A stretch of DNA of 51,014 nucleotides. It comes from an uncultured Chitinophagaceae bacterium. Lineage in GTDB: Bacteria; Bacteroidota; Bacteroidia; Chitinophagales; Chitinophagaceae. Position 1 is the first letter of the stretch. Each line of letters starts with the position of its first letter. A program made the position numbers and the translations under genes. The DNA lies in contig CALJNC010000006.1 in the NCBI GenBank assembly GCA_937981995.1, positions 1 through 51,014 on the forward strand, given 5' to 3'. Below the pieces are notes generated by a model. The model was not told the DNA's origin. It made no database searches and saw only the letters and a program-made list of their open reading frames with translations. This document shows, in pieces, positions 7,746 through 13,213 of the stretch.

Positions 7746-7790
7746 AATGATTATCAATTCATCAAATTAGCTCATCATCAAATCAAACAA

Positions 7791-7798
7791 TACCTTTG
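7791..7798 (+). promoter_or_regulatory. -7 element TACCTTTG, 5 bases before priA
   Basis: TACCTTTG, identical to the element before mqnE, followed by ATTCG and the ATG at 7804. It supports this ATG as the true start of the shortened PriA and predicts a leaderless or near-leaderless mRNA. Confidence 0.6.
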
Positions 7799-7803
7799 AT
7801 TCG

Positions 7804-9840
7804 ATGTCAAAAAACGAGAATGGATTCAAGTTAAGTGAGATTCAAAAAATCTTTCCGCAGGCATCTGCTCGTAAAGTAATTTCTAACTTATTAGACAAAG
7901 GATATATTAATGTACAGCAAAAGCTGAAAGACAGATACATACCTAAATATGAAAACGTAATTTTTCTTGAAAATGGTTTTGAAACAAATGAAGAGTTACA
8001 AGAATTATTAAATGGTTTAGATCGTGCTCCCAAGCAGCAAAATATCATTCTGCAATATTTACATTTAGCAGAGACGCAAGATATTGTTTTTCAAAAAGAG
8101 CTTTTAAAAAAATCATCATCTACTAGCACACAACTAAAAACCTTAATTCAAAAAGGGGTGCTTCGTATTGAGCGAATGGGAACAGACCGTGTGCATTTTT
8201 CTAAAAATGAATTTCCTGCTGACATAAGCCTTAGCGAAGATCAAGAGCGTGCTTTAAAAGAAGTAAACGAAAGTTTTAAAAATAAAAAAACAGTCTTACT
8301 AAAAGGCGTAACAGGAAGCGGAAAAACACATATCTACTTCAGACTAATTGAGGAGGCATTAGCTAATAACAAACAAGTACTTTACTTGCTACCAGAAATT
8401 GCGCTGACCGCTCAAATAATCAAAAGATTGCAAGCTAAGTTTGGCGAACAAATAGGCATCTACCATTCACGATTTGGAAACCAGGAACGTGTAGAAATTT
8501 GGCAAAAAACCTTAAAAGGAGAATGCAAAATTGTACTAGGCGCTCGCTCTTCGCTCCTACTACCGTTTCAAAATTTAGGACTGATAATCATTGATGAAGA
8601 GCATGATACGTCCTTTAAACAAGCAGAGCCTTCGCCCCGCTATAACGCTAGGGATACTGCCATGGTTTTGGCACAAAAAATGAAGGCAAACGTGATATTG
8701 GGTAGCGCCACACCGTCTGTAATTTCTTACTTTAATACAAGTCAAAAAAAGTATGATCTTGTTGAGTTAAACGAACGATACGGCGAAGGCAAAATGCCTA
8801 AGGTTGAAATTATAGATTTAAAAAAGGCCTACGACAATAAAGAAATGCGCGGGCTATTTTCTGAAAGACTTCTAACAGAAATGAAAAAATCTTTAGAGGA
8901 CAGAAAACAAATTATCCTTTTTCAAAATAGAAGAGGCTACTCCCCTTTCCTACTTTGCCAATCTTGTGGTTTTGTACCCAATTGTGAGCATTGCGATGTA
9001 TCGCTTACATACCACAAACAAACAGATAAACTACATTGCCATTATTGCGGCACGGTATATCCTTATATAGTAGTATGTCCTACATGTAATAGTAATCAAG
9101 TAAGCACCAAGAGTTTTGGCACCGAAAAAATAGAAGAGGAAATCATGCGCGAATTTCCGAATGCTCGAGTGGCCCGCTTTGATTGGGATGCCTTAAAACA
9201 AAAAAATAAATTTAAAGAACTAATCACGGCCTTTGAAAATAGACAAATAGATATCCTAGTAGGAACCCAAATGGTTGTGAAAGGACTTGACTTTGAGCAT
9301 GTAAATCTAGTTGGAGTATTAAGTGCCGATAGTTTATTATCATTCCCCGATTATAGAGTAAACGAGCGTGTTTTTCAGCTCTTGGAGCAGGTAAGCGGTC
9401 GTGCAGGACGCAAAGACGACAAGGGACAAGTGTTGATTCAAACGCACCGTGCGGATCATCCTATTATTAAACTAGTGCAGCAGCATGACTATGAGCAATT
9501 TTACAAGTTAGAAGAGCAGCATCGTCATGACTTTGTTTACCCGCCCTTTGTAAAACTTATACGTCTTACAATAAAGCATAAAGACAAAAGCAGAACCTTT
9601 GATGCCGCCATGGCGCTAGTAACTACCCTTAGTAAAATGACAAACATTCATTTAATTGGACCGGCTGAGCCGCCTGTGGCCCGCATCAGAAATCAATACT
9701 TACAAGAAATTTTAATTAAACTCCCTAAATCAAGAGTGGCAATTACTGAAGTAAAAAACAATATATACCAAGCCGTGAATGAACTAACTAGTTTAAAAAA
9801 CAATAGCGGCGTTCGGGTTATATTAGATGTAGATCCTTAA
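7804..9840 (+). CDS. priA: primosomal protein N' (replication-restart helicase PriA), lacking the N-terminal domain
   Basis: A 678-residue superfamily 2 helicase that reloads the replisome at collapsed forks. Seen: winged-helix region (about 1-125), Walker A GVTGSGKT (168-175), DEEH box (264-267), GSATPS, and the zinc-binding insertion with eight Cys at 385, 388, 394, 397, 412, 415, 425 and 428. RGYSP, TQMVVKGLDF, QVSGRAGR and the C-terminal domain are present. Missing: the N-terminal 3'-DNA-binding domain (about 105 residues) that normally contains a V.LP.PL..F.Y strand and a G.RV.VPFG motif. An in-frame TAG lies 36 bases before the ATG, and a -7 promoter element precedes the start, so the short form looks real rather than misread. 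The signal peptidase-like gene follows 11 bases downstream. Confidence 0.9.
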   Translation: MSKNENGFKLSEIQKIFPQASARKVISNLLDKGYINVQQKLKDRYIPKYENVIFLENGFETNEELQELLNGLDRAPKQQNIILQYLHLAETQDIVFQKELLKKSSSTSTQLKTLIQKGVLRIERMGTDRVHFSKNEFPADISLSEDQERALKEVNESFKNKKTVLLKGVTGSGKTHIYFRLIEEALANNKQVLYLLPEIALTAQIIKRLQAKFGEQIGIYHSRFGNQERVEIWQKTLKGECKIVLGARSSLLLPFQNLGLIIIDEEHDTSFKQAEPSPRYNARDTAMVLAQKMKANVILGSATPSVISYFNTSQKKYDLVELNERYGEGKMPKVEIIDLKKAYDNKEMRGLFSERLLTEMKKSLEDRKQIILFQNRRGYSPFLLCQSCGFVPNCEHCDVSLTYHKQTDKLHCHYCGTVYPYIVVCPTCNSNQVSTKSFGTEKIEEEIMREFPNARVARFDWDALKQKNKFKELITAFENRQIDILVGTQMVVKGLDFEHVNLVGVLSADSLLSFPDYRVNERVFQLLEQVSGRAGRKDDKGQVLIQTHRADHPIIKLVQQHDYEQFYKLEEQHRHDFVYPPFVKLIRLTIKHKDKSRTFDAAMALVTTLSKMTNIHLIGPAEPPVARIRNQYLQEILIKLPKSRVAITEVKNNIYQAVNELTSLKNNSGVRVILDVDP

Positions 9841-9851
9841 ATAGAAGTAGT

Positions 9852-10520
9852 ATGAAAAAAATAATAATTGCAGGTGTAATATTATTGGGTGTTTTATTTA
9901 TGATTTTATTTATTGTGCATATTACTGGTACAATTGAAATGTATAATATGCCTACGCCAAGTAATGAACCTTCTATAAAACAAGGTTCAATTATTCTGGC
10001 TTCGCCTTATAAAGAAGCAAAGAGACTTGATTTTATTTGTTTTGAATATGATGATCAAGGTGCAATGTATACTAAGAGATTATGTGGCATTGCGGGTGAT
10101 AAAGTAGAATTAAAAAAAGGAGTTCTGTATATTAATAATCAAAATGTAGATAAAAATCTTACCTTAATGCACAACTACCTTATTACTCAAATTGCCTACG
10201 ATAGTTTATTAGAAATAGGTTTGGCATGTGAAACGGCTATCCAAAATAATTCAGGACTAGGAATCTACACATCCGTTGTTGACTCTGTGGCTTATAAGAT
10301 CAAAGGGACAAACTTTGATTTTGCATCTTTTGCCTCAGCTGATTATCCTGCTATAAAAGCCAAGTATGGACAAGAATGGACCCCAAACGATTTTGGACCC
10401 ATTATGGTTCCTAAGGATTCCGTATTCGTTCTTGGAGATAATAGAGACAACTCGCTTGATTCGCGTTACTTTGGATTTGTAGCTGTAGACGCAATTAGGC
10501 AAACGGTACTATTTCAGTAA
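9852..10520 (+). CDS. signal peptidase I family protein (short paralogue)
   Basis: A 222-residue S26-family membrane peptidase with one N-terminal membrane helix (about 3-25). The catalytic Ser motif reads TPSNEPSI in place of the usual SMEP, keeping Ser and EP but replacing Met by Asn. The general-base Lys is in YTKRLCGIAGD, and the C-terminal box GDNRDNSLDSRYFG is perfect. The extracytoplasmic insertion is short compared with the next gene. It follows priA by 11 bases and precedes the larger signal peptidase gene by 110 bases. It is probably active because Ser and Lys are both kept; it may process a subset of exported proteins. That specialisation is inference. Confidence 0.82.
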   Translation: MKKIIIAGVILLGVLFMILFIVHITGTIEMYNMPTPSNEPSIKQGSIILASPYKEAKRLDFICFEYDDQGAMYTKRLCGIAGDKVELKKGVLYINNQNVDKNLTLMHNYLITQIAYDSLLEIGLACETAIQNNSGLGIYTSVVDSVAYKIKGTNFDFASFASADYPAIKAKYGQEWTPNDFGPIMVPKDSVFVLGDNRDNSLDSRYFGFVAVDAIRQTVLFQ

Positions 10521-10630: not shown

Positions 10631-11749
10631 ATGAACCTTCAATTTTGGAAGAAAAAAGATACGGAAGAGAAAAAGAAAAAATCAGCTGGTCGAGAATGGC
10701 TTGATGCTGGAATATTTGCGGTAGTAGCTGCAACCTTAATAAGAACATTTCTTTTTGAAGCTTATACGATTCCTACCCCAAGTATGGAAAAATCATTGAT
10801 GGTAAATGATTACCTCTTTGTAAGTAAAATGCATTACGGTGCTAGAATTCCTATGACACCATTGTCTTTTCCTTTTGTTCACAATACCATGCCGCTTGTG
10901 GGAGGCAACTCTTATTCAACAGCCGTACAATGGGACTATAAACGCTTAACTGGATTAGGATCAATTGAACGTTTTGACGATGTAGTATTTAACTATCCCG
11001 CCGATACTTCTTTACGCGATAGCAGACCCATTGATAAAAAAGAAAACTATATTAAACGTTGTGTGGGCATTCCTGGTGATACCTTGTCTATGCAAAAAGC
11101 AGAACTTTATTTAAACGGACAACCCGCTTACAGCCCTAAGTACAAACAATTAAAATACTACGTACGTACTATTAACGGACAGGATATTAATTCTGAAATC
11201 CTTGCTGACCTAGATATTTATGCAGATGATAATGCTATGAACAATTTAGTATTAAACCTTACTGAAGGTGATGTAGAAAATCTAAAAAAAATACCAAATA
11301 CATTAATTACTGTATTAGGCGAAGCTGAACCTTCTTTGATAAACAATACGCCAGATCCAAATTGTTTCCCGTTTGATACATTACATTTTAAAAATAATGT
11401 TGACAATTTTGATCCTTTTTATATCCCTGAAAAAGGAAAAACAATTCAATTAAGCACAGATAATATTGCATTATATGCAGACGTAATTACTAAATATGAA
11501 GGACACTCACTTAGCTATGATTCAACTCAAATATTAATTGATGGCACTCCTCAAACCAATTATACTTTTGCTATGGATTACTATTGGATGATGGGAGACA
11601 ATAGACATAACTCGCTTGATTCTCGTTACTGGGGTTTTGTGCCCGAAGATCATATTGTAGGTAAAGCATGGTTCATTTGGTTTAGTTATGGTAAAAAAGG
11701 AATCCGTTGGAATAGATTATTTAGAGGAATCAAAGCCTTAGAAAAATAG
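10631..11749 (+). CDS. lepB: signal peptidase I
   Basis: A 372-residue S26-family leader peptidase that removes Sec signal peptides at the outer face of the inner membrane. A basic N-terminus precedes one membrane helix (about 24-42); the catalytic Ser is Ser51 in PTPSMEKS; the catalytic Lys is in YIKRCVGIPGD; the conserved C-terminal box is GDNRHNSLDSRYWG. Between them is a long insertion (about 150-300), typical of Bacteroidota enzymes and responsible for the length over E. coli LepB-type cores. A basic C-terminal tail follows. The cytochrome c gene starts two bases after its stop, so both are on one mRNA. It is the more canonical of the two adjacent signal peptidases. Confidence 0.92.
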   Translation: MNLQFWKKKDTEEKKKKSAGREWLDAGIFAVVAATLIRTFLFEAYTIPTPSMEKSLMVNDYLFVSKMHYGARIPMTPLSFPFVHNTMPLVGGNSYSTAVQWDYKRLTGLGSIERFDDVVFNYPADTSLRDSRPIDKKENYIKRCVGIPGDTLSMQKAELYLNGQPAYSPKYKQLKYYVRTINGQDINSEILADLDIYADDNAMNNLVLNLTEGDVENLKKIPNTLITVLGEAEPSLINNTPDPNCFPFDTLHFKNNVDNFDPFYIPEKGKTIQLSTDNIALYADVITKYEGHSLSYDSTQILIDGTPQTNYTFAMDYYWMMGDNRHNSLDSRYWGFVPEDHIVGKAWFIWFSYGKKGIRWNRLFRGIKALEK

Positions 11750-11751
11750 AC

Positions 11752-12153
11752 ATGCAAAAAATTATTCCTTTATTATTAGTATTATTTTTTTACTCATGCG
11801 GAAGCGAAAACTCCTCGAATGAAGAAGAAATATTTACTGATAATGAATCAACTGAAGAGATGATACAAAAGGGTAATGTGCTATTTAAAACGAATTGTCG
11901 TGTTTGCCATTCTTTAGATAAAAACGAACCAACAACCCTTGCTCCTGTGCTGGATAGTATTCAACATCATTGGCCAGATAAGACTGTTCTTGCACGATAT
12001 ATAAAGAATGCCCCTAACATGATGCAAGAAAATAAGCGCTCTCGTAAAATTTATCAAGAGTGGAAAGACAAAGCTCAAATGCCTGCCTTCGCTGGTTTAA
12101 GCCCTGAAGAAATCAATTGTATTATAAATTACTTATATAATAAAACGCAGTAA
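11752..12153 (+). CDS. class I cytochrome c lipoprotein
   Basis: A 133-residue periplasmic electron carrier anchored by lipid. The signal peptide ends in FFYSC (Cys16), followed by an acidic Ser/Asn/Glu linker. The haem-binding motif CRVCH lies near residue 49, and the distal Met ligand is in QMPAFAGLSPEEI, the usual C-terminal pattern MP.F..LS..E. One haem only. It starts two bases after lepB, an odd partner, suggesting chance operon assembly rather than shared function. The electron partner is not identifiable here. Confidence 0.88.
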   Translation: MQKIIPLLLVLFFYSCGSENSSNEEEIFTDNESTEEMIQKGNVLFKTNCRVCHSLDKNEPTTLAPVLDSIQHHWPDKTVLARYIKNAPNMMQENKRSRKIYQEWKDKAQMPAFAGLSPEEINCIINYLYNKTQ

Positions 12154-12205: not shown

Positions 12206-13213
12206 ATGAAAACCACTACAATCACACTACTACTATCTCTTATTATTTCAATTAGCCTTCAGGCAAATTCTACAAGTTTTGAAGAAGGATTAAAATGGAA
12301 AGAAAAAGGCAACCTCGTTGAAGCTTTAAAACATTTTGAAAAAGCAAATGAAGCAGATCCGAGCAATTTAACTATTGCTAAAGAATATGCTAGCACTGCC
12401 TACGAATTAAGAAAATACGTAATTGCTTTACCAACCTATGAGCAAATATTAATATCGGAACCAAAGAATGTAACTGTGCTAACAAGATTGGCAAAAATGT
12501 ATAGCTATAGCTCTCAGAAATTTAAGAGTGTAGAATATGCAGAACGAGCAGTTAAGTTAAAACCTACTAGTGTAGATGAACAAATTGAACTTGGAGATGC
12601 TTTCTATTTTGTAAAGCACTACCCTAAGGCAATAGAACTTTATAAAAATATACAACCAGCAAATGAGTATACGTTGCACAAAATTGCTAAGTCCTATGAA
12701 AAGATGAGTGCGTACCACTCAGCAACAGAGTACTTTGGCAAACTGATTGAGCTTAAAAAAGATCCAAAAGCAACATTGTTCTATGAATATGGTAAAGCAC
12801 TTTATAATAATAATCAATATAAACTAGCAACGAAAGCATTTATCAAATCAAAAGAAAAAGGGTTTTATAATAAGAAAATGATTAACCAAAATATTGCATT
12901 AGGTTTCTTTGCATTGAAAGCATACGAACCAGCGCTAGAGTTTTACCTAGAAGCAAGACAAAGCGCTCCTTATGATAAAAACCTAAACCTTGACATAGCT
13001 GATTGTTATAACAGAATGGGCAATTTTAAGCAAGCAAGATTAGTAATTACTGAATTACAAAAAACAAATCCACAAGATGGCGACTTAATGTACGCTTACG
13101 CAATGACTTTTTACAAAGAAGGTAAAACTTCAAAAGCCGAAAGCTACTTTGGGAAAGCCTTTGCTATGAAACCGGCTTTGAAAGGTCTACGTTATACTAA
13201 GAGTAGATTTTAA
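12206..13213 (+). CDS. exported TPR-repeat protein
   Basis: A 335-residue protein with a Sec signal peptide (cleavage near SLQA) followed by about eight tetratricopeptide repeats, for example the 34-residue units containing GNLVEALKHFEKANEADPSN, SVEYAERAVKLKPTSVDE and KAESYFGKAFAMKPALKG. Such proteins are periplasmic scaffolds; the partner is unknown. A TATATTAG about 30 bases upstream may be a -7 variant. Its stop codon overlaps the stop of the convergent histidine kinase by four bases, with no visible terminator between them. Confidence 0.8.
   Translation: MKTTTITLLLSLIISISLQANSTSFEEGLKWKEKGNLVEALKHFEKANEADPSNLTIAKEYASTAYELRKYVIALPTYEQILISEPKNVTVLTRLAKMYSYSSQKFKSVEYAERAVKLKPTSVDEQIELGDAFYFVKHYPKAIELYKNIQPANEYTLHKIAKSYEKMSAYHSATEYFGKLIELKKDPKATLFYEYGKALYNNNQYKLATKAFIKSKEKGFYNKKMINQNIALGFFALKAYEPALEFYLEARQSAPYDKNLNLDIADCYNRMGNFKQARLVITELQKTNPQDGDLMYAYAMTFYKEGKTSKAESYFGKAFAMKPALKGLRYTKSRF

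What the first reader, a model, noticed from the sequence alone, without database searches (positions are those of the whole stretch)
7804..9840. PriA without its 3'-DNA-binding domain
The helicase core, zinc-binding Cys and C-terminal domain are intact, but the N-terminal domain (about 105 residues) that binds the 3' end of the nascent leading strand is absent. An in-frame TAG lies 36 bases upstream, no matching piece is in the 100-base gap, and a perfect -7 element and ATG sit exactly at the shortened start. Fork recognition would have to work differently, or another protein supplies this function.
Basis: partly seen in the sequence, partly recalled or inferred. Interest (0 to 1): 0.5.

Follow-up and report, generated by a model that had tools for sequence, protein, structure and literature searches.

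The report
PriA helicase split into two genes
In a small group of uncultured Bacteroidota, the protein that restarts stalled DNA copying (PriA) is made from two distant genes instead of one: the piece here is the motor, and the missing 3'-end sensor sits elsewhere in the same genome.

Summary
The short PriA is real, but its 3'-end-binding domain (3'BD) is not lost: it lies elsewhere in the same genome as a 142-aa gene (G000:C26, E 3.5e-29). Together the two genes cover a relative's full-length PriA, bar about four residues at the joint.

The split marks a clade: separate 3'BD genes in 14 of 14 genomes of genus g105 and 2 of 3 of the window's genus, the third cut by a contig end. The partner motor gene was read in 11 genomes; in a single-contig genome the halves lie about 1.4 Mb apart. 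In a phylum sample, 136 of 137 genomes with the domain keep it in a frame of 757 aa or more; G000 is the exception.

The sister genome G034 has acyltransferase-priA-lepB in a row. The N half keeps the acyltransferase (11 of 11 loci), the C half lepB (5 of the 9 loci whose downstream side was seen): one break inside priA.

The break falls inside a winged helix (WH1). Both WH1 parts stay conserved, so I infer that the halves reassemble non-covalently into a working PriA.

The parts
7804..9840 (+). priA C half: motor subunit, 678 aa (WH1 remnant, WH2, helicase lobes, zinc ribbon, C-terminal domain), stop codon included
7825..7968 (+). remnant of the first winged helix (WH1) without its first helix; residues about 8-55
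8029..8184 (+). second winged helix (WH2), whole; residues about 76-127; aligns with the region of the single WH of E. coli PriA
8236..8718 (+). helicase lobe 1 (DEAD, residues 145-305)
8983..9057 (+). PriA zinc ribbon (PF18319, residues 394-418)
9544..9837 (+). PriA C-terminal domain (PF18074, residues 581-678)
7791..7798 (+). TACCTTTG, match to the Bacteroidota -7 element TAnnTTTG (consensus recalled), 5 bases before the ATG; same spacing in G001, G183 and G107
7768..7770 (+). in-frame stop TAG upstream of the start
10631..11749 (+). lepB (signal peptidase S26): synteny marker that follows full-length priA in the sister genome G034
11752..12153 (+). cytochrome c: second synteny marker, same order in G034
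12206..13213 (+). 335-aa gene (TPR-like by my reading; no domain search run): third synteny marker, same order in G034

Best explanation
This is the motor half of a PriA split between two unlinked genes. A rearrangement breakpoint cut an ancestral acyltransferase-priA-lepB string inside priA, in the loop after the first helix of the first winged helix (WH1). The upstream half (3'BD plus that helix) gained a stop codon and a short tail. The downstream half gained a start codon and, in several species, a -7 promoter element. Both are kept by selection as a pair. Most likely mechanism (inferred): the two proteins meet because helix 1 of WH1 on the 3'BD subunit packs against helices 2 and 3 on the motor subunit. 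[quoted passage not shown] Shown: two genes, one clade, the ancestral order, an almost loss-free cut, conservation of both halves. Inferred: physical association, function as PriA.
For: Separate 3'BD gene in the same genome, its only PF17764 match. N half matches residues 6-141 and C half residues 146-816 of relative L069's PriA. The same joint in 8 of 8 split genomes aligned; the other three with both halves read (G107, a near-copy of G183; G411 and G367, frameshifted near the C start) fit by eye. Genus census 14 of 14 with frames of 147-197 aa. Tree: 11 split rows on one branch, SH-aLRT 94. Sister G034 carries acyltransferase, 815-aa priA, lepB, cytochrome c and a TPR-like gene in a row. In one search the acyltransferase precedes the N half in 11 of 11 N loci (one further ORF lies between in L062); lepB follows the C half in 5 of 11 C loci (both of g1, three of g105), is not seen in 4, and 2 end at the C half. 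dN of the halves is alike in three distant pairs: N/C 0.248/0.246, 0.218/0.254, 0.251/0.231. WH1 helix 1: Ala134 and Leu135 in 16 of 16 split and 41 of 41 full-length rows; hydrophobic at 124, 129, 130 and 131 in 16 of 16 split rows. C-side WH1 is as conserved among 8 split rows as among 12 full-length Chitinophagaceae rows (0.558 vs 0.508). AlphaFold: WH1 is folded in the full-length relative (blocks of 79-92 over 131-190); in the window protein alone its remnant has blocks of 60-76 and lacks one wing strand, while WH2 stays at 84-89 over 71-120 (77 for 121-130).
Against: No contact between the halves was tested; no tool here folds two chains. The weaker WH1 may reflect only the cut input and alignment. 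In the close pair G183/G107 the N half has dN/dS 0.36 against 0.04 for the C half, on nine differing codons, which alone would be weak constraint. WH2 is less alike among split than among full-length relatives (0.505 vs 0.628), and helix 1 slightly so (0.580 vs 0.651). lepB no longer follows the C half in 4 of the 9 loci whose downstream side was seen. Start codons of the C half are unclear in G235, G411 and G367.
Confidence: 0.78

Rival explanations
1. The 3'BD subunit acts on its own: it binds 3' ends at forks and recruits the motor through DNA or SSB, with no lasting contact between the halves; WH1 helix 1 is kept only for the stability of the N protein.
For: The E. coli 3'BD (105 residues) was crystallised alone with dinucleotides (PMC4129139, passages); the N half matches it.
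Against: The N half has kept WH1 helix 1, which lies after the 3'BD, with its core residues in 16 of 16 rows, and the C half keeps the matching helices (8 rows).
Confidence: 0.15
2. The motor half works without any 3'BD and the N half is a decaying leftover.
For: Low constraint on the N half in one close pair (dN/dS 0.36, nine codons).
Against: N half open and ended by its own stop in 16 of 16 split genomes where its end was read; in distant pairs its dN is close to that of the C half while dS is saturated or about 2; 3'BD identity among 15 split rows is 0.695.
Confidence: 0.04
3. The halves are joined after transcription or translation (trans-splicing by a split intron, or a split intein) into one chain.
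For: The cut loses almost nothing, as splicing would require.
Against: No intein domain among the Pfam matches of either half (the best 25 of 37 shown for the C half); no intron RNA match within about 1.5 kb of either gene of G000 (one sub-threshold riboswitch match only). The N half has its own stop, and the extra tail and head vary in length between species.
Confidence: 0.02
4. Assembly or sequencing artefact.
For: All but one of the split genomes are multi-contig drafts; G411 and G367 show apparent frameshifts near the C start.
Against: Separate N and C genes read in 11 genomes. All 11 N halves and 9 of 11 C halves lie about 3 kb or more from a contig end (the C halves of G390 and G342 run off contig ends). 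G411 holds both on one 4.27 Mb contig, about 1.4 Mb apart.
Confidence: 0.01

Closest known systems
PriA (primosomal protein N'), E. coli / K. pneumoniae type (PDB 8fak, 4nl4)
   Same: Helicase lobes, zinc ribbon, C-terminal domain and a WH2 that aligns with E. coli PriA are all in the window protein; the 3'BD is in the partner gene.
   Different: Two polypeptides from two loci. The cut lies in WH1, an extra winged helix between the 3'BD and WH2 for which E. coli PriA seems to have no room.
Full-length PriA of Chitinophagaceae (Chitinophaga sp. CF418, L173; sister genome G034)
   Same: Homologous over the whole length; same domain order; same neighbours in G034.
   Different: One gene there, two here.
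Gene fission by rearrangement in bacteria (general kind, recalled)
   Same: Two conserved halves of one ancestral gene at separate loci, each with an ancestral neighbour.
   Different: It hits a replication-restart helicase inside a folded domain; none of my literature searches listed it for PriA.

Membership tests
PriA | 3'BD (PF17764) in the same polypeptide | tested here: not met
   No PF17764 match in the window ORF
PriA | 3'BD encoded in the genome | tested here: met
   142-aa gene, E 3.5e-29; profile of 10 split N halves matches E. coli 3'BD 2d7e, E 7.6e-14
PriA | DEAD and Helicase_C lobes | tested here: met
   Pfam over cut-off
PriA | Cys-rich zinc ribbon | tested here: met
   PF18319, 39.3 bits over 26; Cys 385, 388, 394, 397, 412, 415, 425, 428 invariant in 41 rows
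PriA | C-terminal domain PriA_C | tested here: met
   PF18074, 54.6 bits over 26.9
PriA | Winged helix as in E. coli (here WH2) | tested here: met
   Sequence alignment from residue 68 to E. coli residue 128 onward; helices and strand at 76-127 in the model. Not compared fold to fold.
PriA | Fork-specific binding, 3'-5' unwinding, restart function | not testable with these tools
   Needs bench work
Gene fission | Ancestral intact gene with the neighbours of both halves | tested here: met
   G034, one sister genome
Gene fission | Single origin (split rows one clade) | tested here: met
   11 rows on one branch, SH-aLRT 94, just under the starred level of 95, quick tree; shared flanks
Split intein / trans-spliced gene | Intein domain or intron RNA at the ends | tested here: not met
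   (G000 loci only)

The most novel reading that the evidence does not exclude
A natural two-subunit PriA in which the 3'-end sensor is a detachable subunit: its separate expression and reversible docking through the rebuilt WH1 set when the motor may act at a fork, and free 3'BD may also guard 3' ends on its own.
Probability: 0.15. Interest if true: 0.75.

Novelty: new variant of a known kind. Interest (0 to 1): 0.57.

Why it matters
In a sample of the phylum the 3'BD was found in 137 of 138 genomes, in 136 of them within one long PriA-sized frame. A lineage that has kept PriA as two genes suggests that 3'-end recognition and the motor need not be covalently linked. It offers a natural system in which 3'BD and motor can be removed, titrated or swapped one at a time. 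It also shows a replication-restart gene surviving a break inside a folded domain, with both ancestral flanks still readable, and warns annotators against calling such genes truncated.

Tried and rejected
Loss of the domain: rejected. Second, full-length PriA: none found. Splicing: no intein or intron signal. murB (cluster c2, named by my reading) as the gene after ancestral priA: it lies downstream of priA in 9 of the 15 full-length loci, but in G000, G001, G279, G034 and G003 murB is on another contig than either priA piece, and in G411 about 114 kb from the nearer half, so G034's lepB is the informative neighbour. A bulky residue at helix-1 position 132 looked split-specific, but G034's full-length PriA has Met there too, so it was dropped; Ala22 and the basic residue 24 of the C half also have counterparts in G034.

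Named-genome scan with the motor protein found no relative. Of the other 75, 68 run on for 700 aa or more, six leave the contig and one (L160) stops inside the motor; none stops at the joint. The five named split loci are not extra species: L111 and L113 have the contig lengths of G107:C21 and G390:C27, L112 the position of G313's N half, and L110 and L114 N frames identical to G547's and G548's.

Frames short for other reasons: G002 and G018 (contig ends); G032, G035, G040, G045 and G119 (3'BD and motor piece in one frame); G168 (adjacent overlapping frames, looks like a frameshift). G049, G056 and G319 were not read. No PF17764 match: G014 (72% complete), 20 of 394 (2 of 331 among the better genomes), G529. 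The family survey lists only part of its 374 matches, so other split genera could be hidden there. The structure match tests mainly the helicase core. Rows dropped before counts: G107 from the split rows for identities (15 of 16 left), G107, G411 and G367 (8 of 11 left), and the same three.

Literature: I read passages only of PMC10175261 and PMC4129139, and saw search listings; one search found no paper. 'Not described' means that no title or abstract start in those listings told of a split PriA; the library is open-access papers only.

Full report
Observation. The ORF at 7804-9840 encodes 678 aa with DEAD, Helicase_C, zinc ribbon and PriA_C domains but no 3'BD. An in-frame TAG lies 36 bases upstream, and TACCTTTG, which fits the Bacteroidota -7 element (consensus recalled), ends five bases before the ATG. 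That pattern occurs 56 times in the window on both strands (shuffle mean 82; all 100 shuffles have at least 56), so one match at this spot is modest evidence. It is strengthened by the same spacing in G001, G183 and G107: 4 of 11 C starts examined including G000, G183 and G107 being near-copies. G411 has one at a similar place, G390 only a distant one, and the other five none.

Where the domain went. PF17764 matches once in the window's genome: a 142-aa ORF on contig C26, behind an acyltransferase, E 3.5e-29. Against PriA of relative L069, that ORF covers residues 6-141 and the window ORF 146-816, so about four residues at the joint are unmatched. G000 has no other PriA: its two remaining matches to the window protein are partial, at 34% and 29% identity, in frames of 728 and 1127 aa.

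How widespread. Genus g1: G000 and G001 have the stand-alone 3'BD; in G002 the contig ends inside the 3'BD. Genus g105: 14 of 14 genomes have the 3'BD in a frame of 147-197 aa. The stop codon of the N half was read in 11 genomes and in five more, 16 in all. The partner motor ORF was read in 11 genomes; it is in pieces or cut by contig ends in G342 and G390 and frameshifted in G367 and G411. In G411, one contig of 4.27 Mb, the halves lie at 2,523,981 (-) and 1,092,060 (+). Outside the clade: in a phylum sample of 138 genomes at least 90% complete, 137 have the domain; 136 of these carry it in frames of 757-1174 aa and one, G000, in 147. Among 80 named GTDB loci the five most similar to the query (L110-L114) are split and none of the other 75 stops at the joint. 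These five are the same genomes as five of g105, not extra ones, but they give names: all are metagenome-assembled, two titled Chitinophagaceae bacterium and three Bacteroidetes bacterium.

One origin. In a quick IQ-TREE tree of 65 rows the 11 split rows fall on one branch (SH-aLRT 94), next to full-length G034 (the split rows are joined N and C proteins, some partial). G034 carries acyltransferase, priA (815 aa), lepB, cytochrome c and a TPR-like gene in a row. In the gene maps (ORFs of 90 aa or more) the acyltransferase precedes the N half in 11 of 11 N loci, with one further ORF between in L062. Of 11 C loci, lepB follows the C half in 5 (window, L063, L087, L090, L092; in four of these one ORF lies between), with the TPR-like gene and a kinase behind it. 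It is not seen in L085, L088, L094 and L099; L097 and L101 end at the C half. So the halves keep the two ancestral flanks, which fits one breakpoint inside priA and later shuffling around the C half in some species. The nature of the rearrangement (inversion or other) was not resolved.

Where the cut falls. The AlphaFold model of Chitinophaga sp. CF418 PriA (mean pLDDT 88.3) shows a winged helix (WH1: helix 126-138, strand 140-142, helices 143-150 and 156-164, strands 168-175 and 182-188) and a second one (WH2: 209-259) before the helicase; calling them winged helices is my reading of the element order. In 8 of 8 split genomes aligned, the break lies between helix 1 and helix 2 of WH1; N halves add a short tail and C halves a few residues. 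E. coli PriA seems to lack WH1. Between the end of the 3'BD match and the start of the helicase match there are 91 residues in full-length chain 6dgd (124 to 215) and 36 in 6dcr (125 to 161), which is titled a winged-helix deletion; the window's species has about 36 plus 140 there. In 8fak the alignment runs on to window residue 68 at E. coli residue 128, so E. coli's one WH answers to WH2. A cut inside a domain that another PriA does without may be easier to survive (inference).

Why I think the halves work together. dN of N and C halves is alike in three distant pairs (0.248/0.246, 0.218/0.254, 0.251/0.231), with dS saturated or, in the one case computed, 2.1. In the close pair G183/G107 dN/dS differs (N 0.36, C 0.04), but on nine codons in N. 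Helix 1 of WH1 keeps Ala134 and Leu135 in 16 of 16 split and 41 of 41 full-length rows, and hydrophobic residues at 124, 129, 130 and 131 in 16 of 16. On the C side WH1 identity is 0.558 among 8 split rows and 0.508 among 12 full-length Chitinophagaceae rows. If WH1 no longer formed, both parts should drift. Against this, helix 1 is slightly less alike among split rows than among full-length Chitinophagaceae (0.580 vs 0.651), and WH2 as well (0.505 vs 0.628). The window protein alone gives a WH1 remnant with pLDDT blocks of 60-76 over residues 1-50 and one wing strand missing, against 79-92 over the matching part of the full-length model; WH2 stays at 84-89 over 71-120 and 77 over 121-130. This suggests but does not prove need of the missing helix.

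Function. In E. coli the 3'BD holds the nascent leading-strand 3' end and the WH docks on parental duplex (PMC10175261, passages); the isolated 3'BD was crystallised with dinucleotides, and Asp17 is called crucial (PMC4129139, passages). In the split N halves the position aligned to Asp17 is Thr in 10 of 10 rows, but Thr is also nearly invariant in the 40 full-length Bacteroidota rows, so this is not linked to the split.

Rivals. Splicing is not supported; decay and artefact are unlikely; independent action of a free 3'BD remains open. No listing I saw told of a split PriA (open-access library only).

Verdict. A real, clade-wide, nearly loss-free fission of PriA into two genes, new as a variant of a known protein. 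That the halves reassemble through WH1 is my inference.

Noticed in passing
window 7755-7790: Upstream of the C half the sequence TCATCAAATYA occurs twice; the window has 10 matches with up to one mismatch against 5.1 expected (2 of 100 shuffles reach 10). G001 has a similar run at the same place..
   Followed up: partly
window, whole: TAnnTTTG occurs 56 times against a shuffle mean of 82, and all 100 shuffles have at least 56: the -7 element may be avoided.
   Followed up: no
L103 6250-6460 (G168): priA N and C frames overlap on one contig, which looks like a frameshift after the 3'BD region; one 69%-complete genome.
   Followed up: partly
L085 and L099 (G411, G367): Apparent frameshifts near the start of the C half, probably sequencing errors; in G367 the motor match also breaks near residue 584.
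   Followed up: partly
L173 10001-12439: Full-length Bacteroidota PriA is predicted to have two winged helices in a row before the helicase; E. coli PriA seems to have only the second.
   Followed up: partly
window 9852-10520: A 222-aa gene between the C half and lepB, not seen at the same place in G001; it looks like a second signal peptidase by eye, not searched.
   Followed up: no
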